From NCBI GenBank assembly GCA_013407085.1, contig JACCGJ010025996.1, positions 1 to 64,000 on the forward strand: a stretch of 64,000 bases of DNA, given 5' to 3'. This DNA is from Atriophallophorus winterbourni. Lineage: Eukaryota > Platyhelminthes > Trematoda > Plagiorchiida > Microphallidae. Below the pieces are notes generated by a model. It was not told the origin of the DNA. It made no database searches and worked only from the letters and a program-made list of their open reading frames with translations. This document shows, one piece after another, positions 13,805 to 62,468 of the stretch (its first letter is position 1; the number at the start of each line of letters is the position of its first letter). The position numbers and the translations under genes are program-made.

Positions 13805-13840
13805 CGTTACACGGCAGCGACACAGATCAGTCGTGAGAAA

Positions 13841-13901
13841 ATGTCGCATCTTTCTATCTTGTCCGCTACATTCGTACTTATATTGCGCCTGAATGTAATT
13901 C
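13841..13901 (+). CDS. MEG exon 1: start codon and signal peptide
   Basis: Encodes MSHLSILSATFVLILRLNVI plus the first base (C) of the next codon; donor GTAAGT at 13902. Leu/Ile/Val-rich and without acidic residues, it has the look of a secretory signal peptide, with cleavage probably in exon 2 after the CTG region. Start chosen because it is the first ATG after the TATA box and the only one leading into the hydrophobic stretch. Ends in phase 1, as in schistosome MEGs. Confidence 0.85.
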
Positions 13902-16900
13902 GTAAGTTTATGATTGTTTCGTTTATATCAACACTTATATAATGATTAAAAAAAAACTAATACAAATATTTGTTACCTTCAGTTTGCACCGGAGTAACAT
14001 ATAGTAAGTCTGAACTCTTGTTGACATGTAAATCTTATTCCCATACATGCAATTAAATAATAATAATCTAGCTCATATGATGCACTAAAGGTAACTTCAT
14101 ATCTGTATTAGAATCAACTCCAAATCGTTTTGTTATATTTCAAAAGACTGTATTTTGATTTATCTGTATGTTTTCTTGCGAATGGTTTTAGTAGCGATTC
14201 CACATTTAGCAGCACATACACACAGCTTTTTTGCATCCATTAAGCCTCTGAAACGCGACTTAATTTTACTCGAGTCGAAAGGTATCCAGCCTGGGTGCAG
14301 GCAGGATTGGAAGCGCTAAAAGGTTTATGTCAATTGATGCAATCGGTATGCTGTGCTTACGAAACGCATCGTAATTCACTTCTAAACATATACAGGAAAT
14401 GTTTTGAAATATTAGTTGCGATCCCGTTTAAACTGTTTCCATTTAAAGTCTTTATAATTAAGACTTCTTTGCGACGAACTACTCTTTTAAAATAAGCTAT
14501 CATAAAGTGCTCCCAATTTATTGATGCAATATGGTGCTTACTTTCACGTATTAAAACAACAACTAAATTCAAGCTGTTCGGCATCACCTGGATGGGAGAG
14601 TGAAACGAGGTTCAGTGAGACTTGAGACTGTGAAAAATTAGTAAACATAGTTTTATTTTAAAGTAATTTCTGAACAAGGATTATACCACGAACCGTGTTG
14701 TTCAAATAAATAATCGCAGGGCGATAACTGACTGATCACTTAAAATTCTCGCATTTGAAACGGTGAATGATTACTAATAAACCTTTTTCCTAAACGAATA
14801 GTCAATATTTATTTGTAATAGTAAAGCTCAAAATTTTCGGTCAACATACATTTTGAAGGCTTTCATCGTGAATACATTATGTTACTCATGAGACTGCACT
14901 TGCACTCGACGCGTAATTATTGCTGTTTTCGTATTCAGTTTGAAAAATAAAAGTGTTGATTTTTATACAGTAAAATGAAGCGGTTATCGTTATTGTTCAT
15001 TGGATGGCAACCTTGTGCGCATGAGCATTTTATACTTTGTAGCAATTCAAATGACATGTAGTCCACATGAGCAATCTCTCCCACAGCGCGCACAGCAATA
15101 GGCAATTTTCCGTCGATCACTAACAGTTGAACCCCAATGGCGTGCTGAACGGCTGTATCTGTTCTCCTCAAGTTTGGAGATTACGCTACACGCAGCGCAT
15201 CTAACGATCGCGGTTAATAACACGTTCTTATTAACAACTCATGTCAATGTCATGAGCCTACAGAAAGTTTAACAAAGATTGTGAACAACAAACTGTTTTG
15301 AGTCGTGAACCGCTCAGTAAGCCTAATGAATTTTAGATCACTAAAATTGAATTGAATTGAAATTTATTGAACTATTTCAGATAAAGCGCTCAAAATAATT
15401 GAATTCCTCTTTTGTATTGAGTTGCTTACTCCTTATGCAGATAATTTAATCTGAGCTTTAATCCATCATAAATTTGTATGTCAATCGGGCGTCTATATGA
15501 TTGGCATACTGTAAATGATATCGCTATTATTCCTATAGTTTTTATTATAATAAATTTTTGAGTTAATAATAAATAGCCATATGTGTACAAAATTATTAAT
15601 GTTATTCTTGTTGTGTTCTTGCGCTCCATCGAATAGAATTGGGCGACTTCGAATTAAAATGTGAGTATTCAAAACTTGTTGAGGGGAACTTTGTCGTAGA
15701 TATCTACACTTCTGAATTAATGTAATGAAATTATTCTGATATTTTACCGGTAATCTATAAAATTTGACAATGTTGTTACCGAATATTGTTAAACATCATA
15801 ATTCTAACAAAAAACTTGGTAATTCAAATCAAAGCTTCACAATACCTAGATTGAAGAAATCAACAATTGATGTGAAAAATGTCAAACAATACCACAATCA
15901 AATATCACATGATTTTATTCAGACTCGATCAACAAGTGTTGAGATCAGTCATGAAAACAAAAGATTACGCACTTGTCGTTTTGGAACCATTGGTATGGTA
16001 GCAGATTCTGATGACGATCACATCAGCTGTCTTTCATCCAAGTCCTTCAGACACGTCTTGCGGAATCCGGCGAAATGAAATGTTATAAATCACGTAATAT
16101 AGATTTCCAGTTTATCCGATATTACACGTATCCATTCATCCTCCAAAGTTTGTAATGTTGATTTTTGTCGAGAATCTCGGAAAAAGTTGTGTACATAAAT
16201 AATTTTTCTACGGCACAACAATATTTTCATAATTGACATTTACTACTTATCAACTTTGATTGATAATATTTTCCAATGTCAAAATTTCAGACACGAAAGT
16301 TTCGAATGAATCAGGTAAAAACAAATAATATTGTTGTCAATTGAGAGGAATATTCTTGTTTTAACAAATGCGATTATAATCATTTTTAATTTATTCAAAA
16401 TTTAGTCAAATTCAAAACCCCGTACGGTATGTGCTTCGAAACGTTTCCAATCATAAATTAATGCGTATTTTAAGTTTGCGTGACCATGTTTAAATTAATC
16501 CATATAATAGGCCGATTTTACTGAAACATCCAGTTTGAGATCATTTTATTCGGCAATGAAAAGTTTTAAAATAAAGGTAAAGCTTTGGAGTCAGAACTTT
16601 GTTAAACATATGAAATAAAATCATACACGTTTGACACAATTGAATTTTCTGACGCAAAGATGATTTTTATAGCTCTCTCACTCTCTCTGCATATTATTAT
16701 ATATTATACAAGCAAACAATGAAATCCTTGTAACATATGTTTCAATGACGCATTTGGAGTATTTTGTTGATAAAGTTTCGTTCTGTGACGGAAGCTTCAT
16801 CAGACTGAAGTTATCAACAGTGAGAGTGAGAGTGTTCTGGATTGAATCGTATTCGCCTGATCAATTTTAAACTGGCTAACAATTGCATTGTTCATAGTAG

Positions 16901-19900: not shown

Positions 19901-22900
19901 GGTTGTACCAATGTGATGAACATAGGCATTCGCATATTAGATTTGATTTCTCATATAGTTTCGGGATCTAATGTGATAGGATTTATATCGGTCCTGATTA
20001 TGTGGCTGTTTTTTAACCACATGACATGATGTTTAGCAACATCAATTTGGTGGGCCTGAAAAAACTGACCGATGGCAACGTATACACTTCACTGAGTATA
20101 AGAATGAAGCGGACTATCTATTGCTTCCGAAATTGCAGTTTATCCGCCAGTATTTTCCGTCATCTCTAAATTTGTTTCGTGTAATTTTCTCACAGGTGAG
20201 ACAGAACTCAAAGTGGGATCTCTTACTCAAATGCGTGAGTTTACTTCTAATCTACATGCGTATATATGTATTTTGGAAATATTTCTGGTAAATGTCTCAA
20301 TGAACAATGCACACTATTATATAATTCGAATAATAACATTATAATATAAACAGTGAGTGTTCACACAACGCATGTTTACTAAACTTCGAGCGGTCACTTA
20401 AGCGGACTGATTGAATGTATGAAATAAGAATTTCTCGAATATCAAAAAAATCAAAATTTGAGCACGCTGGACGTGGGCTACGAAATGTAAAACAGAGAGA
20501 TGGAAAATTTGGACATTGACTCTATCAGCTTATACGAATCTGCTTTTGATCACTTACACTGTGTGCAGTGTGTGAAGTGACCTGTACAAACAGTTAAATA
20601 GCAGAAACAGCTCTCGGCAGATGAACGTGGACCGAGCCAATCGGTTGGATATTGCCAATCACTCTGAGCGTTGTGGGAGAGATTGTTCTACTTAAATCAT
20701 ATTTTGCATAGCGCAATGCGGTTGCATCACTTTGAGCTGCGGATTATCAGGATATACTGATCTTACAATTAAACCTACGTGAATAAATTATACGTTGTTG
20801 GAATCCCATCGAATTTAGTTTTCTGGATATATATGAGCAAATTCGGATTTTTCATGATTTTCCATATTGGATCTAATCTTGCAGCCCTGTTAATATTATT
20901 TAGGTCTTAAAAATGATAAATGTCACAGAAAAGATTTTATTCTCCGCCATCGACCAGCTATATATTTCAATATCATTTGATCAACTAGTGATGTCTATCT
21001 CAAGATTTATTCCTGTTTTTGCTCTTATTCATGAGCACCGCTTTTTGTCCAGCTCACGATATTCATCATCGATCGCTCGAAACAACCACTGTTTGTGCAC
21101 ACACCACTGATCAGTGCTGCTTACAACCCAGACCGGAAGACTACGAAAAGAAAACAAAGCACAAAGGGCTACATGTGCAAGATTTGCCAAATGGCATCAA
21201 TTCCTAAGTCTGTCACGTGTTACGCTTGCTTGTCAAAATTGCATGCAAAATGCTACAAATCGCAGACCTCAGATTTAGTTTGGATTACTGACTATCGTTG
21301 CCAGCGCTGCGGGAGAGATTGTTCCTCCCGAATCGGACTGTTTAGTCACTCAAAAAGCTGCAAAACTTGAACTTTCACGCGTTTGTGATGTACATCCATG
21401 GTCGACATCGACCGAAGGAGGCCAACAACAACAACTAATGGAGATATTTGTCCCGGTGTTTGTTCCGTCTACAAGGTATGCAAGGCCAGACCAACAGTGA
21501 CATACTATGAGGCAAACATTGCTGACAATGAAATTACAAATGAAATTCTGGTGCGATGGGAATGATTGTTAATGAGCTTTCCTGAAATTGAAACGCTTTT
21601 AAATGGACTCGAATCAGGAATTCATAAGTGGACTGAACTGATAAAAACGTCATATATGTACATTTGATTCCAGACTCAGAGGTTACTACCAAAGAGCAAG
21701 TATTGCATGCGCCACATTCTAACAAGCCAGCATTTACCCAGATGGTGACTAAAGCAAGTAAGTGTTCGACGGTAACGCTGACGTCTGAACTTCACGAAAA
21801 GGAGGAAGTTCTGAGCAAAACCAGGTCACATCACAAGGAGGCAAAAAACTCTATAAAACACGGAAATACTTTAAGCGAGATCTGAACCGAAATTCCAGAG
21901 TCAGAATACACGCTCTTTTAAACGAGATAAAAGCATGACATTAACATTTTGTTGGGTATTTGCATTTGAATTGACTTACATGATATACACATGATGTCGG
22001 TAACTCGGCTCGCTCTTCATCCGAACTCTGCAAATCAAGACAAACCGCGTTTGATTAGGATACGATTTGTCAATGTATAGAAAATGGAAAATGTTCTATG
22101 AATTCGTATTTGCTCCGAGCACATAGTGACTCTTACCACCGTATGTATGCTGACATAACTTGGTGGTAACGGCCACGAAGTGATGTTTTTAATTTGGTGT
22201 ATATCCGACGCCGAAATCATTTTGTTCACTAAACTCTCCATTGCAATGTTCACTTATATGGTATGCGAAATCTACTTGTTTCTCCACATTCATGCATTTA
22301 TTGAAGTTAAAGCGCAGTTTGATCTTCAAAGACCAAACCTGTAGCACACCAAGATCTATTGATAATAGCAAACTGTCTTCTAGGCTACGGATGCACCCCT
22401 ATATCATTATGTCGTCCGCGAATAACTATATGTTCCAGAGAGCAAGTACCAGTATTTCATTGACCTAGACAAAAGAGGTCTGAACCTCAGCTAGTTGCTG
22501 CAATTAGTTTTGATAATTCACCATCAGCACGTAACTGTGTAGTGCGATTTGTTTATTAGTCAATTAGCCAATTCAACAATTTTGGGTGACACCAAGCCTT
22601 TGACGCTTCTGCAGTAGTATGGTGTGGTTAACACGATCAAATGTTTCTGAGATATATATGTAGCTGGTGTGTATTGATTGCCCTTTATCTACCTATTTTG
22701 TCCAATCTTCCAGCATTATCAGTAAATTAGATAAGCATAAATAATATGGTATAAATCCGTGCTGTTTTCCCAAAAGTAACTGATTATTTGTGAAAAGTTT
22801 AAATCAATGTTTCTGATTTAAATTTTTGTTCACGGTTCGAACCTAGACCGCTTGACTTGCTTACACTATGATTTTAATGTTTAAATCTGAGCAATATATT

Positions 22901-25900: not shown

Positions 25901-26539
25901 GCATAATCAATAGAACTGTTTCTTGCTCGCTATTTGTAACAAATTCATATTGAAGTCATTTTATGTGCAACTTTCAGCGACACCGGAATTAAAAGGTGAG
26001 TTCGTCTTGATAAATACTACTTTTTGAATTTATCAAACTAAGCAATTACCATTCATTCTGGAGATTCACAAATATGAATTCCAAAATTACAATGCATAAA
26101 TTCTTGCACATAAACAATTTACCTCAAATCATATCATTCAAAATGGTTCTGTCCGAGGATAAAACAATACTTTGGACGCGAATCAGTTATGCAGATGACT
26201 GTGAGGAACTGCAAATATATTTTCAAAACGTGTCGGATTGGGCTACTATGAATGATCTGACTTTCAACATACGGGAAATCTAGATGGTACATATTGGAAA
26301 GGAAGTCTCCTGGACATATCGATAATAAACTGAAAATGTGGCTCGGAGCTCGTTGGGGAACGGCCATGAAGTACAGATTAAGGGAAACATGAAGAAGACG
26401 ATTTCCTTCTATTATATAACTACTGTAGGAGAATGGTCATCTTCAGGTTTCCCTTAATCCGTATTTCATGGTCTTTTTCCAAAGAGCTCCGAGCCAAATT
26501 TCAGTTTCTCATATATAGTATATAATATATAGAGATATA

Positions 26540-26587
<48 letters not shown>

Positions 26588-26603
26588 TAGTATTATATAT
26601 AGA

Positions 26604-26639
<36 letters not shown>

Positions 26640-27622: not shown

Positions 27623-27686
<64 letters not shown>

Positions 27687-48089: not shown

Positions 48090-48137
<48 letters not shown>

Positions 48138-50169: not shown

Positions 50170-50209
<40 letters not shown>

Positions 50210-53200: not shown

Positions 53201-56200
53201 GCGGCATTGAGGCCGTTGTTTAATTCGTATACAATGAATAAACAGTACAATGTGAGTATATAATATTGGAGTGGTTGGTAAAAAAGCCACAGATGTATAC
53301 TAACATATTTAAGACCAAAGTACGCTATCATCTGAATGGATAAGTTTTAACCGTTTTCTCTCACTTGGTAATCTTTAAGGAGAGCGTGTCGTTGACCCGT
53401 TCACATTCCAATACGAATCGTATAGATCGTACTCAACATTGAAGTATGAAACATCGTGTAATCATAAAACCCTGGCTAGTGACACAAGTATTTGTAATAC
53501 AATGAGAGTGTTCAATTTTATCTATCCATCGATTTTCTGCCATTGCTACCAAGTTCGAAGTCACTAACACGATTCATTTAATGCTCCTTTCCGCAGAATC
53601 TGGTGAACGCGACTACCTCGGTGAGCTTCGTTTATTGTCTCACATTTAATGCAATTTTATAAACGAATTATAATTAAAACGAGAATGGAATTGAACTGGA
53701 CTTTTTCTTCAACATGAACTAAATTCAAACGCGAAGTGCAATAGTGATGAGTGTTAATCACGAGCTTTAAAATGATATGAAGTTCTCCGCACGTCAACAC
53801 AACTCAATTGCGAACATGTAATGTTTCGGGTTTCGGGGTGTTGGTTTGCGAACATTTCGAGCGACAACATATGTGGAAGTATGAAACGACTGGCAATGTC
53901 ATCCGCAATCACACGGTATGCAATTAGTCAATGTCCGTCAAACGTACCGGTCGGCACGAAATCGACTTACAAACACATCGAAGTGACAACCGGGACAGAC
54001 ATGTTGAGGATCCGTGTTGTGATTGTTTTTTTGCCCAAGTAACTGGCGTGTGTTTTGTGATTGGTCTTGTGCTAAATAAACGCCTCTTGTGTAGTGGGTG
54101 AACCTGATTACCGTTGGACAAGTTGACCTCTGGTGTGGATCGGGTGCCCAAGTACAAGTGGCTGTGAAACGCGGGGGCTAACTTGGCTATTGTTGGACAA
54201 ATGAAACATAAATGAGCCAATTGGCGACCTGCCCATTGTTAACTTAAAATGAGAAGAAGCAATCATTTGCGGCCTCACTACCCCACCCGCTACAATATGA
54301 TGCGTTTTACTTTATCGGGTAGTACCTCACCCGCTACAATATGATACGTTTTTCTCTATCGTGTAGTAGATTTGTACCTAAAACACTTTATGTTTTTTAT
54401 TACTTGAACAGTTTCAGACGCAATGAGTAAGCAAGGAGTGTCAAATATCGAGCTATCATTTTCCTATGTTTTATGCCTTGTGTTTGATTCTTTGATTTAA
54501 CGGTAATATGGGATAGCTACTCTCAAGCCGATTAGGAAGATGCAATTAAAATTATTTTAAATGGTTTGTGTGCTAACCTGATTTTTTGATGTTTGCTTGT
54601 TCATCCATCATGAAAGTGTTTGGACGCTGAAACCAAGAACTGTCTCATGATGTTTCCTAATATGCATGGACATTTCAACAATTTCAGATGAAATAATTTT
54701 CGTTTGAATCATTGAACGGTCGCCAGTGCACGTTGGAATTATGTGTATTTCCCATTTTCTTTGAAATATTAGAATTCTAAATTTCAAGGAATTAGAGTTA
54801 TGAAAGCTATCGCTCGATAGCTTAAGACGAATACGGAATGGATATAAACATAAACAATGTAAGTAAGGCACATAAAATTTACTTAAGCACGTAAATGAAT
54901 GGCTCAGAATCAACCGCTAGGTCTCCCAGTTCTCTTCGATGAACGAATATTCGAGAGATGTACAACTACTTGTTGTACTGCGTATAAAATCTTGATGGTG
55001 ATCTGTGTTCTCCGGCTTTTCATTACTACGTACGACTCGGTTTGTTTTCTACCCACAAATAGCCGTACAAGGCTTGCCGTTCTCAATCGATATTGTGTGA
55101 TAAATATCATATCATTTACATGTTTTAACGCTGACACGGTTTCCAAAACTCTTCACAATTTCTCTAAACCTACGGGTGCACTGATTTCCTTTCAAATTTT
55201 GAAGCCGGCAGCGAACAGAACTATTTCAGATGTGATGAGTGTGGTTAATCGTTCATGCATAGCAAAGATCTAAACGAACTGTGTGCAGATAATTGCTGAA
55301 ACGCGATGTTGGTTACACTCAATTTAGTCGACAGTTTGTTTACTCTAACATTTGCGTGTGAATCTCATAAGTATTAGCACAACCACGAAAGCAATAGTCC
55401 ACCTGTACTTTGTACCTCTGCTTTTGTAGAAGCATATTGTGAATGATTTTATCAAAATCTCTCGATATGTTCACATGGTGGATATTTGTTTGTGGATAAC
55501 TATATCCAACCCTTTCGTCCAACGCTGTAAGAACATATCTCAAGGTGCATCACTGTGTTTGAACTTCATGCTGCCATGGCGAAAATATATGAAAAGTGCG
55601 AAATCATGTTTTCGGAAACTACAAGTTTCATAGAATTTACAATCACAGGCATCACTATAACGACTACGATGCAATTCAGATTGTATTGATTCACTGACTG
55701 AATGGAGTGTTAGTATGTTTCAGTCATTTTTTCATACATTGCTAATGTTAACTTTACGCCCAAGTACGATGATGGAAAGAGATGAACTATTTTTTCTGAT
55801 AGCTGACCCGGCGCAGGATTCGAAACTGAGTAGGGCAATTGCAAGAAGCTTGTACCATTTGGTGCGTCCCCAAATCTCTAAGCATTGCAGGCACCCGACG
55901 TCGGACATCTATCTCCCATGTGGAAATTGACCCCGTCAGGTCGACACATCTGATATCGACGGTAAAACAGTGTCAAATGTCTCCATACCATTGCTCCGCA
56001 ATTATTATTATTATTATTACTATTATTATTGTACGAAGTTTCTTCCTTGAGAACTATTTGAATGTGGTGTTCCATCAAACAATATTCAATGGATTGCATC
56101 CCAATTCGAAGGTCATCTCCAATATATGGTGGTGAATGGCAAAAGATCACATGCAATACCGATTCCTCGTGGTGTCCTGCAGGGTACAGGTTAAGATTCT

Positions 56201-59200
56201 CGGGTTTATATGACGTAAATAAATATGAAATTTTTCTTTTGTTAACAAAATTTGTTTCCTAAACATGAAATATGTTTAAAAAACATTATTGAATTTGTCT
56301 TTCCAGAAGAGGATAAAAGTAAATGGAGTATTTCTAAAATATTGAATTTCCTCAAAAAATCAAATATACATTCTTGTTTGATATACCAATAGCTCCACTT
56401 AAAACTGTGTATAAGCATTGATTTGACCCAGGATACGATGCTTTCCATTTGATCGATATTTATCCCGGTGCATAATAGGTTATGGACTGTAGTAGTGAGA
56501 TATGTGGAATTCTCAAAACTGGTTATTCTAGGATTCATTGATTAAATAATTTAATGTTAAAACCTTATTACTTTACAACACCACATTATTAGGATATGAA
56601 TAAAAATGTGAAAATATAATAGTATAAAATGAGTAGAGTTTATCAAATGTAACGCTCACAAATGATGTTCTTTTGTATATATAAGACCTAGTTTGCTTTA
56701 AACATCGCCAAGCAAGGAGAGCACACCACCAATTAAATAAGGGAATGCTAAAGAATTATAGTACGTACGGCAAAACAATGGGATGTAAAGTGATAAGCTA
56801 TTGCCACGTGACATTTTCTCATCACAATCTTAAAACATGTGCCTATGTGGATGTCCTTTGGTAGATCCAAGTCTATAGATACGAATAATAGCGCGCCGTA
56901 TTCGCCTTTATGTAAAGTCTCATAGTCGGTTAGTTCGCAATCTGTCGATGTGCGAAACGTTGCAAAGACCCGTCACTGTCTTTGCTGCTCTGTGATAGAT
57001 ATTTCATTGAATACAGCTATATATTTAGCAGCCAAGGACCCAGACTTCAAACTTATAATTCATCGTACGGCGAATATAGATGTTCATTAACCTCGGTAGG
57101 GTAACCAGCGAGAATCGTCCTAATATTCTTTGAATTATATGTCATAATCTCTTGCCATGTCGATATTTGTAGGATACGCTCACGCGTATGCGGTATTTAT
57201 CAGAGCAAAGGCCCCCGATTATCCCTTGTTCCCGAATATGAAATTGCACTTAACATCAGGTGCATTTAGTATAGCATTGAAATAATGGAAAATATATGAA
57301 GATTATTATGAATAGTTTCAAAGTTGAGTTTTTGTCTACCCTCCCTTTATACTACTTCTGCATTTGCTGTATATAGAAAATCCTTAAGCTCGTCAATGCA
57401 GATTTGTTGTCTACCATTAAACTTTTCAAATTTTCCAAGTCAATTGCTTTCATCGTTTGACAAAATTTACTTGATTTTTAACACAGGGTGTGCCATCGGT
57501 CAATGTGAGTCTTAGTTAAACTGTTTTTATATCACCATCGATCGATAGATAACAATATCAAGTCATTACAACGCCTCTGAACGTAATCCAACCCTACATT
57601 CATGATCTAAAAATTCGTAGTGATAAGTAGCAGTTAGCTTCTGTTAGTATAATAATTATTCATTTGAGAGCAAGAAATAATTCATAAACATTTTGAATTG
57701 TCACAGTGCGCAGGTGCAGTTAAATCATTTGTATGTATGTGCAAATTTTGAATTATTATCTCACGGCTGGGGCAGTAACAATATTTGCAAAAACGAAAGG
57801 CAGGTAGGAGATAAACGTAAATGGCGATAGTCTAAACGGGTATAAATTCTTTGCAGTTTGGTAGAAAACTTCTGAAATCTTTTAACAAACGGGATTGAGA
57901 GGATCAACCTTTGCAATCGTTCCGGTTAAATTAGGCTTTGGAAACCACTGACAAGTTTAATTCCAATATCTGTAAATTTGTGGAAATCTCCTTGCAACTA
58001 ACTGAAAAGGAATTGACCTGAATTTTCTAACACCAGGTTGTTACTATATGAATAAAAATGTGAAAATATAATAGTATAAAAAGAGTAGGGTATATCAAAT
58101 CTAAGGCTCACGGATGATGTTCGTTTGCATATATAAGTCCTAGTCTTCTGTCAGAGAAGCCGTGTATGTGGGCGAGCGATGCCTTTATCTGTGCATATAT
58201 TCGCCATAATAACCCCTTGGTTATTGTAATCATTCTATGAACTACCATTCGGTGGCATAGAATTTCCACCGTAGGCTGCATAGTTCGAGTCAAGTGCAGA
58301 TATTGTGGAGCGTTAATTGGGAGCGTTCAAATGATATGCAAAATGGAATCTTTTGACACAACACAGGTGTAGGAAACGCCGGAACTACCGATGATGATAA
58401 TGGAAAAACCCGTATAAATCTGAATACGAAAGGATTGTATCAGAATGCTTCAAGCGACAAGATCTTTGAAAACCAGAAAAGATGGATAAGGTCTGACGTT
58501 ATCGAACGATATGCAATTGGTAATGGTCGATCAAATGAACCAAGTTCAGCCTGGTATTTAAGTGATCCGATCGGAACGAAATCGATTGACAATTCAGATT
58601 GAAGTGAGAACCGGTGTGTTCGGGACAGTGTTGCGCTTGCTAAATGTGCCTATGTAAGATGCGCTTGCGTGGTATTTTGGTTGTCACGTGCGTATTGAAT
58701 GCCAATGTATGGTGTGATTAGGGATTAGCGTTGGATAGAAGAAGAAGAAGAAGGAGAAAAAGAAGAAGAAAAAAAAGAAGAAGAAGAAGAAGAAGAAATG
58801 GCTTTATTCGAATACACGAATTTTCAGCGATTCAATTAATTCGACCACACGTAATGAAATGAACATATTAAAAAAATACATGTCTAATAAAGATGATCCC
58901 ACTTCAGCTATTATACTGTCAGTTTCTTCCTCAAATCGAGAATAACTTTTGTATGATCAACCCAATATCGAGCCAGGTAGGTAATGAAAGAATTTTTGAA
59001 TTTCTCAGTTCTTGCATACGGGACGATATGCTCACTACGCGTAGCTGGGAACGATCTGCAAGCCATAAGGACCTCATTCAGTGGGTGTGCATTATCAGAC
59101 GATATGACTCTGACCAATCTGTCACATTCACGAAAGTGGCGTTCGACGATCATATCACGAAATAACTCGATAGAGGAAGAGCTCAATCTTGAAATTAATT

Positions 59201-62096: not shown

Positions 62097-62142
<46 letters not shown>

Positions 62143-62215
62143 ATATCTATCTCTCTATCTATCTATCTATCTATCTATCTCTCTATATCTATCTATCTAT
62201 CTATCTATCTCTCTA

Positions 62216-62266
<51 letters not shown>

Positions 62267-62311
62267 ATATATATATATCTATATATCTATCTATCTATCT
62301 ATCTATCTCTC

Positions 62312-62378
<67 letters not shown>

Positions 62379-62468
62379 TTATCTATCTACCTATTTATCT
62401 ATCAATTTATTTTTGCATTAGCTGCTCCAAGGAAAACTCTGAGTATTGCGAGGTTAAGAAGAAAATAA
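13841..62468 (+). CDS. Micro-exon gene (MEG-type) for a small secreted variable protein; about 30 exons over 48.6 kb
   Basis: What is seen: exon 1 codes for a signal peptide and ends in phase 1. About 30 candidate internal exons of 6-39 nt follow, all multiples of 3, all between AG and GT, all open in phase 1, with no stop at any consecutive junction. A terminal exon in the same phase ends in TAA overlapping AATAAA. Full set: about 250 codons. What is known: schistosomes and related flatworms have micro-exon genes with a signal-peptide exon, strings of symmetric tiny exons and secreted products varied by exon skipping, often expressed in glands or tegument of parasite stages. Inference: this is such a gene, unusually long and exon-rich, secreted and alternatively spliced. 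I cannot match it to a numbered MEG family, so no symbol is given. Exons are listed individually below. Confidence 0.88.
13983..14003 (+). CDS. MEG exon 2 (21 nt)
   Basis: Acceptor TTGTTACCTTCAG, donor GTAAGT. With the carried base it reads LCTGVTY and likely includes the signal-peptidase site. The intron before it is only 81 bases. It supplies one of few cysteines in the product. Confidence 0.85.
15290..15372 (+). repeat. CR1-like 3' tail
   Basis: A short 3' UTR remnant: CTCAGTAAGCC, TTTTAGATCACTAAA and then GAATTGAATTGAAATT, the same tail pattern seen at 487-506 and 5190-5205. Truncated; no coding part is recognisable upstream. Confidence 0.5.
15637..15660 (+). CDS. MEG exon 3 (24 nt)
   Basis: T-rich acceptor ending CATCGAATAG, donor GTGAGT. 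Reads KLGDFELK with the A carried from exon 2. Phase 1 in and out; ends in T. Confidence 0.75.
15770..16078 (+). other. Unassigned 102-aa open frame inside intron 3
   Basis: An ATG-initiated frame of 102 codons (MLLPNIVKHHNSNKKL at the start, HVLRNPAK at the end), in a window where most open frames are short and AT-biased. The composition is ordinary for a soluble protein: Ser, Asn, Lys and His rich, with an acidic DSDDD stretch at residues 81-85. An in-frame stop at 15758-15760 closes it upstream, and no clear splice sites flank it. It could be a retrocopy fragment, a small nested gene or chance. I recognise no domain. Confidence 0.3.
16291..16314 (+). CDS. MEG exon 4 (24 nt)
   Basis: Acceptor TGTCAAAATTTCAG, donor GTAAAA (weaker, after CAG). 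Reads YTKVSNES. NxS is a possible N-glycosylation site if the peptide is secreted (N-E-S). Confidence 0.75.
16750..16812 (+). repeat. Short interspersed repeat with GAAGCTTCATCAGAC
   Basis: Related to copies at 39150-39195, 63425-63465 and, inverted, 40905-40970; the shared core resembles GTTTCGCTCCTGACACAGAAGC followed by TTCGTCAGAC. Nature unknown; dispersed and non-coding. Confidence 0.4.
16815..19140. other. Intron 4, first part: no feature recognised
   Basis: AT-rich intron sequence. Several AG-to-GT intervals were tested and failed on length or phase. Weak minus-strand open frames (for example 18463-18862) show no recognisable domain. Confidence 0.4.
19195..19640. repeat. Imperfect (ATC)n trinucleotide tract, ~440 bases
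   Basis: Dense interrupted ATC/TTA repeats. Frames through it give runs of Ile/Phe/Asn on one strand and Met/Leu on the other, which are artefacts of the repeat. It lies in intron 4. Confidence 0.9.
20196..20234 (+). CDS. MEG exon 5 (39 nt)
   Basis: Strong acceptor GTGTAATTTTCTCACAG, donor GTGAGT. Reads GETELKVGSLTQM. With the candidate at 39560 it is the longest internal exon. Its GETELK resembles TTPELK of exon 7, which may reflect old exon duplication. Confidence 0.85.
21278..21435 (+). repeat. Retroelement 3' tail encoding a C-x2-C finger
   Basis: Open from about 21095 to 21370. The end reads ITDYRCQRCGRDCSSRIGL then FSHSKSC and stop, followed by a conserved 3' UTR (TGATGTACATCCATGGTCGA, GACCGAAGGAGGCC) and an AAC repeat end near 21437. 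C-x2-C-GRxC-x-SRIGL-x-SH is the C-terminal finger of RTE- or CR1-type non-LTR elements. Upstream residues (YMCKICQMASIP...CYACLSKLHAKCY) hold further cysteine pairs. It is a 5'-truncated copy and the best preserved of at least six in the window. Confidence 0.65.
21900..23860. other. Intron 5, middle part: decayed repeats
   Basis: AT-rich intron. A minus-strand stretch at about 22035-22640 resembles very decayed RT (the plus strand carries GTATGGTGTGGTTAACACGATCAAATGTTTC, like the inverse of RT motif regions), but I cannot assign it firmly. A short (TA)n lies at 23280-23297. No exon met the length and phase tests. Confidence 0.3.
23870..24400 (-). pseudogene. CR1-like RT C-terminal relic, minus strand
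   Basis: The minus-strand open stretch 23863-24192 contains TRKNTKDLGIPHSRLKIGSN and then FFSVRNSLTWNILPDGIKRSE, the conserved C-terminal end of CR1-type reverse transcriptases (FF..R....WN.LP..I..S). The frame breaks on both sides. It is a truncated relic in intron 5. Confidence 0.7.
25169..25189 (+). CDS. MEG exon 6 (21 nt)
   Basis: Very strong acceptor TTATGTATTTTTTCAG, donor GTAAGG. Reads PKIKQDT, a short basic/acidic peptide. Phase 1 in and out. Confidence 0.85.
25450..25500 (+). repeat. Degenerate hammerhead-type repeat
   Basis: CTCCAG, CTAAGGA (decayed CTGATGA), GACAAACAGCTA, GAAACCGGTA and GTGG. Same order as the better copies at 12837 and 38886, but the core is broken. The upstream 120 bases also belong to that repeat family (TTTACCACATTTTCACT). 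A duplicate lies at 26770-26815. Confidence 0.45.
25978..25995 (+). CDS. MEG exon 7 (18 nt)
   Basis: Acceptor TTTATGTGCAACTTTCAG, donor GTGAGT. Reads TTPELK. It is the first of a duplicated exon pair: the whole intron-exon-intron block recurs 1319 bases on as exon 8. Confidence 0.85.
26080..26390 (+). pseudogene. Reverse transcriptase relic (first copy)
   Basis: Reads HINNLPQIISFKMVLSEDKT and then ISYADDCEELQIYFQNVSDW before breaking, matching the RT region from before motif C into the thumb; the catalytic box has decayed. A shorter second copy follows exon 8 at about 27380-27560. Confidence 0.65.
26518..26640. repeat. (TA)n microsatellite
   Basis: Imperfect TA repeat of ~120 bases with a few interruptions, between the two copies of the exon 7/8 duplication. 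Confidence 0.95.
26770..26815 (+). repeat. Degenerate hammerhead-type repeat (duplicate)
   Basis: Counterpart of 25450-25500 made by the tandem duplication: CTCCAGCTAATACGG, AAAACAGCTG, GAAACCGGTAGTGG. The core is lost. Confidence 0.4.
27297..27314 (+). CDS. MEG exon 8 (18 nt)
   Basis: Acceptor TTTGCAACTTTTAG, donor GTGAGT. Reads VTMEVK and is homologous to exon 7 (TTPELK): 13 of 18 bases match and flanking introns align. A clear case of a new micro-exon born by tandem duplication. Confidence 0.85.
27380..27560 (+). pseudogene. Reverse transcriptase relic (second copy)
   Basis: Shorter, internally deleted copy of the 26080-26390 relic; ends with the shared TCGTTGG, AACGACCATGAAGTACGG stretch. 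Confidence 0.55.
27625..27686. repeat. (TA)n microsatellite
   Basis: About 60 bases of nearly pure TA in intron 8. Confidence 0.95.
27780..28180 (+). pseudogene. RT C-terminal relic
   Basis: Reads VPYTERLRRLGLCDFTQWCI, then RRDIILPYRIVSSKGNQL in one frame, then a stop. This is the domain after the RT thumb in CR1-like elements (YxxRLxxLGL...RRxRxDLI). Truncated at both ends. Confidence 0.65.
28192..28596 (-). other. Minus-strand open frame of 134 aa, probable retroelement 3' end
   Basis: Lys/Ile/Leu-rich reading frame whose end reads CECLNYIHGRHQPLEENN. The last part overlaps the inverse of the conserved 3' tail (CATCCATGGT), found in the plus orientation at 21400. The frame probably belongs to a retroelement copy lying on the minus strand. 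I recognise no domain in the first 100 residues. Confidence 0.35.
28650..29700. other. Intron 8, last part: no feature recognised
   Basis: AT-rich intron without a candidate exon passing the length, phase and splice-site tests. Short open frames at 28652 and 29435 look like chance. Confidence 0.35.
29720..29737 (+). CDS. MEG exon 9 (18 nt)
   Basis: Acceptor TTTGTCTATTTTTATACAG, donor GTACGT. Reads DFPFKF, strikingly aromatic. Phase 1 in and out. Confidence 0.75.
30826..30855 (+). CDS. MEG exon 10 (30 nt)
   Basis: Acceptor CAATTCTTCCGTCTACAG, donor GTAAGT. Reads EDFQHGEHLT, acidic and His-containing. It begins with AG, so joining it to an exon ending in T would create a stop; exon 9 ends in G, which is compatible. 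Confidence 0.85.
31044..31061 (+). CDS. MEG exon 11, candidate (18 nt)
   Basis: Very strong acceptor CTCTTTTCATCTTTTTAG but a weaker donor, GTAATT. Reads TMKYDR with the A from exon 10. Length and phase fit. A related sequence without a usable donor lies at 34054, suggesting this exon was once duplicated. May be skipped often because of the donor. Confidence 0.5.
31548..31595 (+). repeat. Retroelement 3'-tail fragment
   Basis: GTGCGCTTGCAATGCACATC then CATGGTCATCTGCGGAAGG matches the conserved 3' UTR of the finger-bearing tail at 21385-21425. Very short. Confidence 0.4.
31600..32860. other. Intron: no feature recognised
   Basis: AT-rich intron sequence with decayed repeat-like stretches. 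Plus-strand open frames at 32132 and 32568 carry no recognisable domain and no flanking splice sites that fit the gene. Confidence 0.3.
32870..33080 (-). repeat. CR1-like 3' UTR, minus strand
   Basis: Read on the minus strand this matches the 3' UTR found after the plus-strand RT relics: the plus-strand text GGTTTTGATTTGCTTACTGA is the inverse of TCAGTAGGCAAAC...CCCGTTTTA. Its GATTCAGGTAAAA mimics an exon end but belongs to the repeat. Confidence 0.5.
33540..33782 (-). pseudogene. CR1-like RT fragment, minus strand
   Basis: Reads RLGNYVDFEYSLGAHRLA and then EKKDLYALISNSLWMSSHCF, the region after the RT palm (xxYxLGxxxLxxxxxxKDLGVxI). Open for 80 codons, but only a fragment. Confidence 0.65.
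34054..34075 (+). pseudogene. Possible dead micro-exon
   Basis: After TTGTTTCAG the sequence CTATGAAATATTTCGCTG closely resembles candidate exon 11 (CTATGAAATATGATCGCG), and the bases after it also align. Here the donor GT is replaced by AA, so it should not be spliced as an exon. Reads like a fossil duplicate. Confidence 0.35.
34179..34184 (+). CDS. MEG exon 12, candidate (6 nt)
   Basis: GCGAAA between a strong acceptor (TTTCATGTTTTTTAG) and a modest donor (GTAATT). It would add two residues, GE or SE depending on the exon before. Six-base exons occur in known MEGs, but such a short match can arise by chance. Confidence 0.35.
34857..34883 (+). CDS. MEG exon 13 (27 nt)
   Basis: Acceptor AATTTTTATTTCACAG, donor GTGAGA. 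Reads ITFKDGKDT after an exon ending in A. Its KDT end recalls KQDT of exon 6. Confidence 0.85.
34890..36770. other. Intron 13: no feature recognised
   Basis: AT-rich intron. The open frames at 35685-35885 (plus) and 36210-36440 (minus) have no recognisable domain. A weak echo of the retroelement 3' tail (GATGTACATCCATTTT) sits at about 35002. Confidence 0.3.
36782..36796 (+). CDS. MEG exon 14 (15 nt)
   Basis: Acceptor AATTGATTTTTCATAG, donor GTAAGT. Reads NTVTF; N-T-V is not a glycosylation site, as it lacks S/T at +2. Confidence 0.85.
37777..37797 (+). CDS. MEG exon 15, candidate (21 nt)
   Basis: Strong acceptor TTACCGTGTTTCTTCAG; donor GTGTGT is weak. Reads VEATKIF with the G from exon 14. 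Open and in phase, but the donor keeps confidence moderate. Could be an alternative exon. Confidence 0.45.
38700..38985 (+). repeat. Interspersed repeat with hammerhead-like core
   Basis: Core 38886-38927: CACTAC, TTGATGA (C3 of CTGATGA replaced by T), stem II GTGC/GCAC (38899-38902 with 38908-38911) around AAACA, GAAA (38912-38915), then ATA as a possible NUH triplet, and GTGGGG pairing back to CACTAC (5 of 6 pairs, one G-T). Upstream GGCCGTACCAACTTTATCCA and downstream GATGTAAATGCATGCAA belong to the family. This is the best preserved stem II in the window. Confidence 0.6.
39150..39200 (+). repeat. Short interspersed repeat (GGTAACGTTTC family)
   Basis: GGGTAACGTTTCACTCCTGA followed by CACAGAAGCTTCGTCAGAC; same family as 16750-16812 and 63425-63465. 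Confidence 0.45.
39560..39598 (+). CDS. MEG exon 16, candidate (39 nt)
   Basis: Donor CGGTAAGT is strong. The acceptor (GGTTTTTTGATAAAG) has a T tract but ends in AAG, and two later AGs give lengths that break the frame. Reads GFKLKFNEPTLQH. Its length equals exon 5 and it lies just before two confident exons. Confidence 0.6.
39688..39711 (+). CDS. MEG exon 17 (24 nt)
   Basis: Acceptor TACTCGATTTTTCCAG, donor GTGAGT. Reads VGTATFRT. Ends in T, so it must not be joined to an exon starting AA or AG. Confidence 0.88.
39814..39828 (+). CDS. MEG exon 18 (15 nt)
   Basis: Acceptor TTTACATAATTTCAG, donor GTAAGA. Reads LDPVE. The intron before it is only 102 bases; with the 89-base intron ahead of exon 17 it forms the tightest exon cluster of the gene. 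Confidence 0.85.
40000..40900. other. Intron 18, first part: repeat debris
   Basis: No exon passed the tests. The stretch near 40651 (ATTGTGGTGCTCATATCC) recurs in varied form near 29665, 41870 and 48436 and belongs to an undefined repeat. Confidence 0.3.
40905..40970 (-). repeat. Short interspersed repeat (GGTAACGTTTC family), inverted
   Basis: Plus strand reads CTCAGTCTGACGAAGCCCAG ... GGAACGTTACCCGAAAAACC, the inverse of the copies at 39150 and 63425. Confidence 0.45.
41304..41330 (+). CDS. MEG exon 19 (27 nt)
   Basis: Acceptor TTTTTTTAATGATTCAG, donor GTAAGT. Reads ITNSKKPVN, basic. Confidence 0.88.
41467..41496 (+). CDS. MEG exon 20 (30 nt)
   Basis: Acceptor TTATGTATTTTCACAG, donor GTAAGT. 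Reads IMLSQSNVVH. The intron before it is 136 bases. Ends in T. Confidence 0.88.
41930..42085 (+). repeat. Degenerate hammerhead-type repeat
   Basis: TTTGTTTACCACATATCCAC then CTAATGA, CGTCAAATAGCCG, GAACCCGGTAGTG. Family member with a mutated core (CTAATGA for CTGATGA, GAAC for GAAA). The GGGTAAGTG after it mimics a splice donor but is part of the repeat. Confidence 0.45.
42610..42618 (+). CDS. MEG exon 21 (9 nt)
   Basis: TCTTTTATC between a very strong acceptor (TTTTTTGCTTTCACAG) and donor GTAAGC. Reads FFY with the T from exon 20. A 9-base exon is below the usual limit for exon definition but typical of MEGs. Confidence 0.75.
42797..42845 (-). repeat. Retroelement 3'-tail fragment, inverted
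   Basis: GGATGTCGACCATGGATGTAC with GCATGAGGTTTTCAC is the inverse of the 3' UTR at 21385-21425. Confidence 0.5.
43740..43925 (+). repeat. Retroelement 3' tail with broken finger
   Basis: Encodes CTRCGRDVSS then a stop where the intact copy reads SRIGL; the second half of the finger (IGLLSHSKCS-like) continues after the stop. Followed by the conserved TTCATGGTCGAGATCGACCG and GAAGAAC-rich end. Confidence 0.6.
44121..44144 (+). CDS. MEG exon 22 (24 nt)
   Basis: Acceptor AATTATTTTCATTTTTAG, donor GTAAGT. Reads PNFKKSPI. Phase 1 in and out. Confidence 0.88.
44360..44377 (+). CDS. MEG exon 23, candidate (18 nt), within a perfect hairpin
   Basis: Acceptor GACGAATTGCAG, donor GTAAGT. Would read ILHQQN. 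The exon lies inside a perfect 9-bp inverted repeat (44357-44365 with 44370-44378, loop ATCA) that also covers the acceptor AG and the first donor base. An internal AG could compete. Skipping the next exon (24) would give TAA at the junction with exon 25. Confidence 0.4.
44960..45228 (+). other. Open frame with a YADD-like box, possible RT scrap
   Basis: The frame 45001-45228 ends SDLDHYADDKSTWRFE. HYADD could be a decayed RT catalytic box, but the surrounding residues do not match well. Not a convincing gene. Confidence 0.25.
45690..45704 (+). CDS. MEG exon 24 (15 nt)
   Basis: Acceptor TATTTCCGTACACCCTCAG, donor GTGAGT. Reads YVMCT after exon 23 or NVMCT after exon 22. Carries a cysteine. 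Confidence 0.65.
46255..46460 (-). repeat. CR1-like 3' UTR, minus strand
   Basis: Plus strand begins AATTTCAATTCAATTCAAC and TGGTCTAAAAAGCAAATAGC, the inverse of the 3' tail after the RT relics at 3350-3413. No coding part is clearly attached. Confidence 0.6.
46470..47970. other. Intron 24, last part: no feature recognised
   Basis: AT-rich intron with no exon candidate passing the tests and no recognised element. Confidence 0.3.
47984..48013 (+). CDS. MEG exon 25 (30 nt)
   Basis: Acceptor AAATTATCTCTTGAACAG, donor GTAAGT. Reads KGKKCTGLLI: a basic head, one cysteine and a hydrophobic end. It begins with AA, so it needs a previous exon not ending in T. Confidence 0.88.
48092..48136. repeat. 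(TA)n microsatellite
   Basis: About 45 bases of pure TA, 80 bases after exon 25. Confidence 0.95.
48140..50120. other. Intron 25: repeat debris, no exon recognised
   Basis: AT-rich. TTGGAGACG at 48496-48504 looks like a 9-base exon but lies in a repeat-like stretch (see rejected items). Open frames at 48865, 49185 and 49697 show nothing recognisable. Confidence 0.3.
50131..50145 (+). CDS. MEG exon 26 (15 nt)
   Basis: Acceptor TTCAACCGCTTTGCTAACAG, donor GTAAGT. Reads EPIRI. Shares the CAATCAGA core with exon 27, so the two are probably duplicates. Confidence 0.85.
50173..50207. repeat. (TA)n microsatellite
   Basis: About 35 bases of TA just after exon 26. Confidence 0.95.
50558..50572 (+). 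CDS. MEG exon 27 (15 nt)
   Basis: Acceptor TTGTCGTCGCTTACTACAG, donor GTAAGT. Reads GTIRD. Same length, same donor and same CAATCAGA core as exon 26. Confidence 0.85.
50750..51195 (+). mobile_element. GC-rich retroelement fragment
   Basis: Clearly GC-richer than everything around it. It opens with ACCGAAGTAGGGGAGATTTC and includes GGTGACCGACGAAACGG, GTCCTTGGATAGGACAAGG and a CCACC-rich 3' part. One frame is open (50959-51369), but there is no finished domain. The abrupt base-composition change suggests a mobile-element 5' region, possibly of an RTE-type element. Identity is not certain. Confidence 0.4.
51683..51805 (+). repeat. Retroelement 3' tail, decayed finger
   Basis: CGCGCTTCGGGATAGATTG and CCAAATCGGCTAATTTAGTC correspond to the finger region at 21300-21345, followed by CATGCGCTTGTGATGTA and an AAC end. 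The cysteine codons are lost. Confidence 0.5.
52350..52445 (+). repeat. Hammerhead-type repeat with intact CTGATGA
   Basis: CCTAC (52362-52366) then CTGATGA (52367-52373), GTATAAACAGCC, TAAA in place of GAAA, CC, GTC (52394-52396) and GTGGG (52397-52401), which pairs with CCTAC over five positions including one G-T. Downstream TGTGATGGAAATGCATGCAAA is the family end. Stem II has decayed. Confidence 0.55.
52795..52890 (-). repeat. Hammerhead-type repeat, minus strand
   Basis: On the minus strand: CTGCCTGATGAGTAAAAACA, GCACAAAATCA and later TGTGTGTGATAGAGG and GCAAATACGGC, the same order as at 62990-63065. GAAA has become AAAA. Confidence 0.5.
53597..53620 (+). CDS. MEG exon 28 (24 nt)
   Basis: Acceptor TGCTCCTTTCCGCAG, donor GTGAGC. 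Reads QSGERDYL. Begins with AA; exon 27 ends in C, so the junction is safe. Confidence 0.85.
53890..54130 (+). repeat. Dispersed repeat, copy 1
   Basis: TATGCAATTAGTCAATG, CACGAAATCGACTTACAA and GAAGTGACAACCGGGAC recur, diverged, at 58515-58650. Non-coding; family not identified. Confidence 0.5.
54412..54426 (+). CDS. MEG exon 29 (15 nt, or 9 nt from a second acceptor)
   Basis: Acceptor TTATTACTTGAACAG gives 15 nt (VSDAM); a second AG six bases on (TTTCAG, 54412-54417) gives 9 nt (DAM). Both keep frame. Donor GTAAGC. Confidence 0.65.
   Translation, partial: FQTQ
54450..56070. other. Intron 29, first part: little recognised
   Basis: AT-rich intron. The interval 55680-55712 satisfies exon rules but resembles an RT remnant (see rejected items). 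A short ATT repeat lies at 56000-56031. Confidence 0.3.
56080..56200 (+). pseudogene. Reverse transcriptase fragment
   Basis: Reads FEGHLQYMVVNGKRSHAIPI and then PRGVLQGT before a stop, matching the RT motif B region (QYxxVNG...RGVLQGxxLxP) also seen in the minus-strand element at 59.8 kb. Confidence 0.6.
56565..56690 (+). repeat. Direct repeat, copy 1
   Basis: ATGAATAAAAATGTGAAAAT and ATAATAGTATAAAA with GAGTAG...TATCAAAT...CTCACAAATGATGTTC recur at 58048-58140, about 1455 bases downstream. Together they flank exon 30. Confidence 0.7.
56700..57480. other. Intron 29, last part: no feature recognised
   Basis: AT-rich intron with repeat-like fragments; no exon candidate. Confidence 0.3.
57487..57504 (+). 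CDS. MEG exon 30 (18 nt)
   Basis: Acceptor TTGATTTTTAACACAG, donor GTGAGT. Reads RCAIGQ. Carries a cysteine and ends in T. Confidence 0.85.
58048..58140 (+). repeat. Direct repeat, copy 2
   Basis: Second copy of 56565-56690 with scattered changes; similarity is lost after ATATATAAG.CCTAGT. No second exon 30 was found behind it. Confidence 0.65.
58500..58735 (+). repeat. Dispersed repeat, copy 2
   Basis: Diverged copy of 53890-54130 (TATGCAATTGGTAATGG, CGAAATCGATTGACAA, GAAGTGAGAACCGG). Confidence 0.45.
58737..58797. repeat. (GAA)n microsatellite
   Basis: About 60 bases of GAA with a few interruptions. It lies at the 3' side of the minus-strand retroelement that starts at 61.2 kb, so on that strand it reads as a (TTC)n tail. 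Confidence 0.9.
58905..61190 (-). mobile_element. Broken non-LTR retrotransposon: APE endonuclease end, reverse transcriptase, C-terminal domain
   Basis: Read from 61190 down: endonuclease end with the SDH motif (SAPIGNSDHCVTSILPKIYG at about 60900-60965); linker with KAAGPDNLSPLLLKE (about 60290); RT entry YPGKYRPIACTSQLLKVLES; motif A LLDYTNAFNSV (about 59910); motif B RGVLQGAILSP (about 59755); catalytic YADDIDV (about 59665); thumb with SKYLGDILSQSLKWTDHV; C-terminal part ending KFKNSFITYLARYWVDH (about 58980). Frameshifts between segments (for example near 60180, 59850 and 59290) break it, so it is inactive, but it is the most complete element here. It lies antisense in intron 30. CR1/Jockey-like by motif. 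Confidence 0.8.
61450..61615 (+). repeat. Retroelement 3' tail with intact finger codons
   Basis: Encodes FRCQRCGRDCSFRIGLFSHS and KNCKT then stop (CxxCGRxC...H...C), followed by the shared 3' UTR (GATGTAATCCATGGTCGACA, AGAAGGAGGCC) and an AAC/ACA end. 5'-truncated. Confidence 0.6.
61853..61879 (+). CDS. MEG exon 31 (27 nt)
   Basis: Acceptor CATTCTACCCGAAAATTTAG, donor GTAAGT. Reads FSYNEETKQ with the T from exon 30. Lies inside a longer open frame (61738-62421) that continues into the TATC repeat, which is an artefact. Donor and phase favour the exon reading. Confidence 0.7.
61982..62405. repeat. (TATC)n microsatellite, ~420 bases, in the last intron
   Basis: Long, lightly interrupted TATC/CTAT repeat filling most of the 542-base last intron. 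It gives spurious Ile-Tyr-Leu-Ser open frames. Its pyrimidine-rich strand runs up to the acceptor of the terminal exon. Confidence 0.97.
62422..62468 (+). CDS. MEG exon 32: terminal exon, basic C-terminus and stop
   Basis: Acceptor TTTATTTTTGCATTAG. With the T from exon 31 it reads SAPRKTLSIARLRRK then TAA (62466-62468). Six of 15 residues are Arg or Lys, giving a strongly basic tail. The only exon with no donor in frame before a stop. Confidence 0.75.

What the first reader, a model, noticed from the sequence alone, without database searches (positions are those of the whole stretch)
13841..62468. A very long micro-exon gene: about 30 symmetric exons of 6-39 nt spread over 48.6 kb
Seen directly: about 30 AG..GT intervals, each a multiple of 3, each open in the same phase, each joining to the next without a stop, bracketed by a TATA box plus signal-peptide exon and by a basic terminal exon plus AATAAA. 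One such interval is weak evidence; a colinear string with constant phase is very unlikely by chance. Family knowledge: this is the MEG architecture of schistosomes. Inference: secreted, combinatorially spliced product, over 98% of the locus being intron. It matches no MEG I can name and may be an undescribed family or member. It would be missed by normal gene finders, because no open frame track shows it.
Basis: partly seen in the sequence, partly recalled or inferred. Interest (0 to 1): 0.95.

Follow-up and report, generated by a model that had tools for sequence, protein, structure and literature searches.

The report
Giant hypervariable micro-exon gene, three copies
This stretch of a flatworm genome holds what is almost certainly a real gene chopped into about 31 tiny coding pieces over 48.6 kb, present in three copies whose pieces change about twice as fast as the DNA between them, as expected of a secreted protein in an arms race with a host.

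Summary
The string of micro-exons is real. With an untrained splice model, 24 of 28 strong AG..GT intervals on the locus + strand are multiples of 3, and all 24 are open in one phase (14 and 15 in the other phases); the opposite strand gives 5, 2 and 1 per length class. The window's own genome holds two full-length colinear paralogs that show the same signal when scanned alone: 19 of 22 and 18 of 25 multiples of 3, all open in phase 1. Comparison supports 29 internal exons of 9-39 nt plus conserved first and last exons: 723 nt, 240 aa, 1.5% of the span. For the 24 intervals picked blind, exon mismatch is 30% and 24% against 13.5% and 12% in matched intron intervals, while AG/GT are nearly always kept. 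I read this as diversifying selection on a secreted-type micro-exon gene. It meets a published structural MEG definition. Flatworm origin rests on a cox1 read with AAA = Asn; the genus is unknown, so 'schistosome' is untested. Expression, splice variants and orthologues elsewhere could not be tested.

The parts
13797..13804 (+). TATA box (TATATAAG), about 40 nt upstream of the start codon
   Evidence: sequence; same in both paralogs
13841..13901 (+). exon 1 coding part: start codon and hydrophobic signal-peptide-like stretch; donor gtaagt
   Evidence: 1 of 61 bases differs in each paralog
13983..14003 (+). micro-exon, 21 nt, end of the signal-peptide-like region
16291..16314 (+). micro-exon, 24 nt, weak donor (low score), splice sites kept in both paralogs, codons very different
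20196..20234 (+). micro-exon, 39 nt (42 in both paralogs)
23007..23036 (+). micro-exon, 30 nt
25169..25189 (+). micro-exon, 21 nt
25978..25995 (+). micro-exon, 18 nt, first copy of a tandemly duplicated exon; only one copy found in paralog C2386
27297..27314 (+). micro-exon, 18 nt, second copy of the duplicated exon
29720..29737 (+). micro-exon, 18 nt
30826..30855 (+). micro-exon, 30 nt
31044..31061 (+). micro-exon, 18 nt, found only by three-locus comparison
34857..34883 (+). micro-exon, 27 nt
36782..36796 (+). micro-exon, 15 nt
38486..38500 (+). micro-exon, 15 nt
39560..39598 (+). micro-exon, 39 nt; this AG is not kept in the paralogs, which have TTTTAG 6 nt upstream instead
39688..39711 (+). 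micro-exon, 24 nt
39814..39828 (+). micro-exon, 15 nt
41304..41330 (+). micro-exon, 27 nt (28 in paralog C14303, in a run of A)
41467..41496 (+). micro-exon, 30 nt
42610..42618 (+). micro-exon, 9 nt
44121..44144 (+). micro-exon, 24 nt (donor lost at this place in paralog C2386)
45690..45704 (+). micro-exon, 15 nt
47984..48013 (+). micro-exon, 30 nt (24 in paralog C14303)
48498..48506 (+). micro-exon, 9 nt (or 24 nt to 48521); lies in a copy of a palindromic repeat, doubtful
50131..50145 (+). micro-exon, 15 nt
50558..50572 (+). micro-exon, 15 nt
53597..53620 (+). micro-exon, 24 nt
54412..54426 (+). micro-exon, 15 nt (GC in place of GT at the donor in paralog C14303)
56307..56318 (+). micro-exon, 12 nt, found only by three-locus comparison
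57487..57504 (+). micro-exon, 18 nt, identical in all three copies
62422..62468 (+). last exon, coding part, basic C-terminus, stop TAA
   Evidence: weak from the window alone; identical in C2386, nearly so in C14303
62464..62469 (+). AATAAA overlapping the stop codon
25427..27454 (+). tandem duplication (25427-26136 and 26746-27454, 89% identical) that copied an 18-nt micro-exon

Best explanation
One protein-coding micro-exon gene of the MEG type on the + strand, 13841-62468, in a flatworm genome, with two full-length paralogs. A conserved promoter and first exon give a secretion signal; 29 symmetric phase-1 exons of 9-39 nt give a small, charged, probably disordered mature part; a conserved exon ends it with a basic tail. 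Because every exon is symmetric and in one phase, exons can be gained, lost, lengthened by whole codons or skipped without breaking the frame. The amino acids they encode are under strong diversifying selection, so the gene makes a set of secreted proteins that share ends and differ in the middle. Shown: exon string, phase, conservation of splice sites and order in three loci, exon gain by tandem duplication, exon-restricted fast change. Inferred: transcription, secretion, disorder, exon skipping, a host-facing role.
For: Untrained scan 24/1/3, all 24 open in phase 1; same in each paralog alone, 19/1/2 and 18/3/4 against 5/5/3 and 4/2/4 on their other strands. Three-locus scan, score >= 3 in all: 23 intervals multiple of 3 in all three, 2 with remainder 1 in all, 0 with remainder 2 in all, 3 mixed; 22 of 23 open in phase 1 in all three (9 and 5 in the others). 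For the 24 blind picks AG is kept in 22 of 22 and 24 of 24 that map, GT in 21 of 22 and 23 of 24, against 1416 of 1933 and 1310 of 1698 intronic AG, 1744 of 2291 and 1597 of 2033 intronic GT; exon mismatch 0.298 and 0.240 against 0.135 and 0.122 (maxima 0.193 and 0.177 of 1000 control sets). The change is sharp at exon edges; codon positions 1 and 2 change at least as often as 3. Exons are more diverged than their own flanks in 24 of 26 and 21 of 26. NG86 dN/dS 1.19, 1.33, 1.44; amino acid differs in 92 of 159, 66 of 147, 79 of 155 codons. Length changes by whole codons (39/42/42, 30/30/24). No stop at any of 30 adjacent junctions. Base use differs between codon positions, G highest at the first, P 0.01 (24 blind picks).
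Against: No RNA evidence is held. The last exon is only one of several candidates from the window alone, though both paralogs keep it. Paralog C14303 has a 28-nt version of exon 41304, paralog C2386 lacks the donor of exon 44121 at that place, and neither paralog keeps the AG of 39560, so not every copy need be intact and I did not apply the 'site lost' rule alike to all candidates: these were kept because a usable site lies close by, GC stands for GT (54412), or the blind score was high. Conversely 16406, 31817, 40247, 42410, 53246 and 26778 keep AG, GT and frame in both paralogs yet were left out for weak sites, tiny size or repeat origin; some may be real. Synonymous change by NG86 is itself above the intron rate, so dN/dS is only modestly above 1; fourfold sites in codons unchanged at positions 1-2 (6/28, 3/28, 5/31) do not differ from introns. 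Six of the 29 exons were accepted after seeing the paralogs; the blind set of 24 is the clean test. No hammerhead element, reported as enriched near S. mansoni MEGs, was found.
Confidence: 0.9

Rival explanations
1. Chance: in 48 kb of AT-rich DNA many AG..GT intervals of length 3n are open in some frame, and the reader chained them.
For: The trained model expects 4.9 false intervals at score 12, and several look-alikes failed in the paralogs.
Against: 24 of 28 multiples of 3 with 24 of 24 open in one phase, repeated in two paralogs, with splice sites kept in nearly all and no excess of multiples of 3 in 153,760 flanking bases (18/24/19).
Confidence: 0.01
2. A real micro-exon gene of another kind, such as the bicycle genes of aphids, whose small internal exons also start with codon position 2.
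For: Same exon phase and many micro-exons; an aphid 'megacycle' gene has more than 100 (PMC9168663, passages).
Against: The genome's best cox1 (C6618) reads with AAA = Asn: of its 7 AAA codons 4 stand where a mammalian chain (7o37_a) has Asn, 1 Lys, 1 Gly, 1 Phe: the flatworm/echinoderm code. Only 4 Cys and 3 Tyr in 151 exon-internal codons, which does not look like CYC-motif proteins. Caveat: C6618 could be a contaminant; 24 cox1-like matches lie on 8 contigs, and the window's own contig was not placed.
Confidence: 0.04
3. The gene is real but the fast change of the exons comes from a local mutation or conversion process aimed at exons rather than from selection on the protein.
For: NG86 synonymous change (pS 0.31 and 0.21) exceeds the intron rate (0.12 and 0.11); 46 of 155 codons between window and C2386 have two or three changes.
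Against: The change stops at the exon edges, and fourfold sites in codons unchanged at positions 1-2 are near the intron rate (14 of 87 over three comparisons that are not independent), though that choice of codons leans to slow ones. The orthologous exon is the best same-length match for 22 of 24 and 22 of 23 exons, so exons have not been swapped between places.
Confidence: 0.1
4. A decayed gene family: the copies are pseudogenes and the exons are drifting.
For: One frame-changing length (28 nt) in C14303 and one lost donor in C2386.
Against: Drift does not make exons change faster than introns nor keep AG/GT, phase and whole-codon lengths.
Confidence: 0.03

Closest known systems
Micro-exon genes (MEGs) of Schistosoma mansoni and other parasitic flatworms
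   Same: Signal-peptide first exon, many symmetric micro-exons between long introns, basic C-terminus in one clade, high dN/dS, an exon duplication near a transposable element (PMC10526429, parts 1-2 of 5 read; PMC4671649 and PMC4350168, passages).
   Different: 29 micro-exons against '10 to 20 very short exons' per gene; last exon very short with AATAAA on the stop, whereas MEGs 26-32 have two long flanking exons; no MEG motif was sought in a joined protein; no hammerhead element found.
MEG-8.2 of S. mansoni (PMC12998952, passages)
   Same: 17 exons, 15 of them micro-exons of 12-33 bp, about 20-residue signal peptide.
   Different: About half as many exons; sequence relation not tested; its activity says nothing about this gene.
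VAL genes of S. mansoni, VAL-6 in particular (PMC4350168, passages)
   Same: VAL-6 has a stretch of very small symmetric exons like a MEG; one group 2 VAL has 38 coding exons (the passages do not say which).
Bicycle and megacycle genes of aphids (PMC9168663, passages)
   Same: Many micro-exons in the same phase, fast evolution, secreted.
   Different: Insects; CYC motifs; the genome here points to a flatworm.

Membership tests
Micro-exon gene (structural definition of PMC7653826) | At least seven exons | tested here: met
   31 predicted coding exons; prediction, not RNA
[quoted passage not shown]
   29 of 31
[quoted passage not shown]
   29 in a row
MEG of schistosomes | Signal peptide in or mostly in the first exon | tested here: inconclusive
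   hydrophobic N-terminus by eye over exons 1-2, exon 1 conserved in both paralogs; no predictor run
MEG of schistosomes | Product made and spliced alternatively | not testable with these tools
   no RNA data held; 8 of 465 forward exon pairs would create a stop
MEG of schistosomes | Sequence relation to a named MEG family | not tested
   exons not joined; no named flatworm proteins searchable; six exon peptides gave 0 papers
MEG of schistosomes | Flatworm genome | tested here: inconclusive
   cox1 with AAA = Asn, code 9, shared with echinoderms; supports flatworm, contamination not excluded; genus not tested
Bicycle genes | CYC motifs (named; cysteine-rich character recalled) | tested here: inconclusive
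   4 Cys, 3 Tyr in 151 exon-internal codons; junction codons not included, no motif search on a joined protein

The most novel reading that the evidence does not exclude
An undescribed MEG family, larger than the 10-20 exons in print, in which variety is stored as hypervariable micro-exons: conserved introns and splice sites act as fixed frames in which each copy of the gene rewrites its codons, so that the unit of diversification is the single exon, with a possible exon-aimed mutation or conversion process beside selection.
Probability: 0.25. Interest if true: 0.8.

Novelty: new member of a known kind. Interest (0 to 1): 0.6.

Why it matters
Genes like this are missed by gene finders because no open frame shows them. 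Here a gene of about 31 exons is recovered from DNA alone and backed by paralogs, with a simple test (splice sites kept, exons changing faster than introns) that could find the whole class in unannotated parasite genomes. The rate inversion at exon edges gives a direct measure of selection on exons of 3 to 13 codons.

Tried and rejected
Exon candidates rejected: 24560, 32553, 42253, 44360 (splice site or frame lost in a paralog), 36071 (unmapped in both), 51442 (unmapped in one, AG lost in the other); 25459-25491 and its copy 26778-26810 (poor donors, in a palindromic repeat also at 41946-42086); 59009-59080 (beside a LINE on the other strand) and 21674-21757 (near a PHD-like ORF), by inspection only. 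Undecided: 37777 (17 nt in one paralog), 38091, 41923 and 45010 (a site lost in one), and 16406, 31817, 40247, 42410, 53246 (sites kept in both, but weak or tiny). My first comparison, of the two copies of the duplicated stretch within the window, gave 41 of 51 exon bases identical against 591 of 654 for the rest (P 0.03) but 93 of 115 for the near flanks (P 1), so it showed no exon-specific excess; the paralogs gave the power. In one search the last exon was placed one base early; one search uses the right place. In some searches the C2386 version of exon 39814 appears as 19 nt because of the alignment; a GT at 15 nt is visible.

DeMarco 2010 and Berriman 2009 are not held. The search for a trematode eggshell domain (PF08034, meaning recalled) did not complete, nor DNA searches with 53550-53860 and 13770-13920. 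The two DNA searches of the genome that were answered found 3 places each, the window included.

Full report
1. Observation. I scanned for AG..GT intervals of 6-45 nt with a textbook splice model (its numbers recalled, not trained on the window). In the locus, + strand, summed score at least 6, the lengths fall 24/1/3 by remainder modulo 3; all 24 multiples of 3 are open in phase 1 (14 and 15 in phases 0 and 2). Random places of the same lengths give 16.65 of 24 open on average and never 24 in 2000 draws. The - strand gives 5/2/1 (first seen). Three of the four that are not multiples of 3 are other donors of the interval 25459 or of its copy. Flanking DNA of three contigs, 153,760 bases on both strands, gives 18/24/19. 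A model trained on 22 exons, each scored with itself left out, finds 30 intervals at 12 or more against 3 on the - strand and a shuffle mean of 4.9, maximum 10 of 100. So the window alone supports about 25 exons.

2. Paralogs. The window is bases 1-64000 of contig C15785 (87,760 bases) of a genome of 537,331,230 bases in 15,840 contigs. A 301-base query over the 5' end finds two further places, C2386 (97%) and C14303 (95%); a query over two middle exons finds the same two at 86-87%. Both contigs are colinear with the window across the gene; colinear blocks are 74-87% identical over most of 19.5-44 kb (to 52 kb in C2386) and mostly 88-95% nearer both ends. I take them for paralogs, since they seem too different to be alleles. 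Scanned alone with the untrained model they give 19/1/2 and 18/3/4, all 19 and all 18 open in phase 1; their other strands give 5/5/3 and 4/2/4. No other copy of the first exon was found in the fetched flanks.

3. Exon list. I compared 46 intervals (45 candidates, one of them in two lengths, and the last exon) in the two paralogs and rescanned all three together. With score 3 or more in all three loci, 23 intervals are multiples of 3 in all, 2 leave 1 in all, 0 leave 2 in all, 3 are mixed; 22 of the 23 are open in phase 1 in all three, 9 and 5 in the other phases. This added 31044-31061 and 56307-56318. The final list has 29 internal exons of 9-39 nt, 615 nt, introns of 81-4917 nt, coding total 723 nt (240 codons and a stop), 1.5% of the span; 0 of 30 adjacent junctions makes a stop. 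The first exon differs by 1 of 61 bases in each paralog; the last exon, weak by itself, is identical in C2386 and nearly so in C14303, with AATAAA kept. The list is a judgement: see evidence against for exons kept although a site is changed in a paralog, and for candidates left out although both sites are kept.

4. How the exons change. To avoid choosing exons by their divergence I used the 24 intervals with nothing dropped. In C2386, 20 could be compared (2 unmapped, 2 of other length): 125 of 420 bases differ (0.298); matched intron intervals give 0.135, maximum 0.193 of 1000. In C14303, 21 could be compared (3 of other length): 103 of 429 (0.240) against 0.122, maximum 0.177. AG is kept in 22 of 22 and 24 of 24, GT in 21 of 22 and 23 of 24; intronic AG is kept in 1416 of 1933 and 1310 of 1698, GT in 1744 of 2291 and 1597 of 2033. 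For the 29-exon list the figures are 0.330 and 0.249 with 26 exons compared in each. The change begins and ends at the exon edges: intron bases -20 to -9 differ at 0.139 and 0.106, donor bases +3 to +6 at 0.038 and 0.050, exon codons at 0.344 and 0.249; mismatches at codon positions 1, 2, 3 are 64, 51, 45 of 155 and 39, 38, 33 of 147. Nei-Gojobori dN/dS is 1.19, 1.33 and 1.44; dN set against the JC-corrected intron rate is about 3.6, 2.7 and 2.9 (my arithmetic). Fourfold sites in codons unchanged at positions 1-2 do not differ from introns: 6/28, 3/28, 5/31. The amino acid differs in 92 of 159, 66 of 147 and 79 of 155 codons. Exon lengths change by whole codons, 39/42/42 and 30/30/24; the exceptions are told under evidence against.

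5. Exon gain. A tandem duplication inside the window (25427-26136 and 26746-27454, 89%) copied an 18-nt exon with its splice sites. By a pattern search the exon is present 2, 1 and 2 times in the window, C2386 and C14303. Exon divergence between the two copies in the window is no higher than that of the near flanks (41 of 51 identical against 93 of 115), though higher than that of the rest of the duplication (591 of 654). The palindromic repeat in which intervals 25459 and 48498 lie warns that two look-alikes may be of repeat origin.

6. Organism. The best cox1 of the genome (C6618, 33,335 bases) has 6 TGA codons in frame and reads well with code 9; of its 7 AAA codons 4 stand where chain 7o37_a has Asn, one each where it has Lys, Gly and Phe. 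This points to the flatworm or echinoderm mitochondrial code, and with a MEG-type gene to a flatworm. MEGs are described from Schistosoma, Echinococcus and Hymenolepis (PMC7653826, passages), so 'schistosome' does not follow. GC is 36.7% in the window and 39.2% over 271,760 fetched bases.

7. Comparison with the known. The predicted gene meets all three structural criteria for a MEG given in PMC7653826. It is larger than the 10-20 exons given for S. mansoni MEGs; among S. mansoni VAL genes one has 38 coding exons and VAL-6 has a MEG-like part (the passages do not say that these are the same gene). High dN/dS of mature MEG parts and a transposon-linked exon duplication in MEG-3 are in print (PMC4350168, passages). 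One search for papers on introns more conserved than exons in such genes returned only that paper, without that phrase; this does not show that the point is new. I therefore file it as a new member of a known kind by architecture, with sequence relation to any named family untested.

Noticed in passing
window 1-11950: About 2.5 copies of a 4.7-kb tandem unit (90-95% identical) with LINE fragments lie upstream of the gene; like units lie upstream of both paralogs, so the duplicated segment is larger than the gene.
   Followed up: partly
window 59219-60703, - strand: Broken LINE with reverse transcriptase (PF00078) inside the last, 4.9-kb intron.
   Followed up: no
window 21035-21370, + strand: Open frame with a weak PHD-finger match (E 0.0009, below the Pfam cut-off); its end recurs near 43788, 51667 and 61452, so probably part of a mobile element.
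   Followed up: no
window 26333-26503: Inverted repeat (82% self-complementary) that scores as a plant microRNA precursor (MIR2118, 40.4 bits, gathering score 85), next to the duplicated exon.
   Followed up: no
window 51121-51198, - strand: Weak match to HDV-like ribozymes (32.9 bits, gathering score 50, E 0.51).
   Followed up: no
G000, 8 contigs: 24 cox1-like matches, nearly all with stops in the standard code, on 8 contigs including the apparent mitochondrial contig C6618: nuclear copies or foreign DNA.
   Followed up: no
window 13841-62468 against both paralogs: Colinear blocks are mostly 88-95% identical towards both ends and 74-87% over most of the middle, as if the ends were homogenised by conversion.
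   Followed up: no
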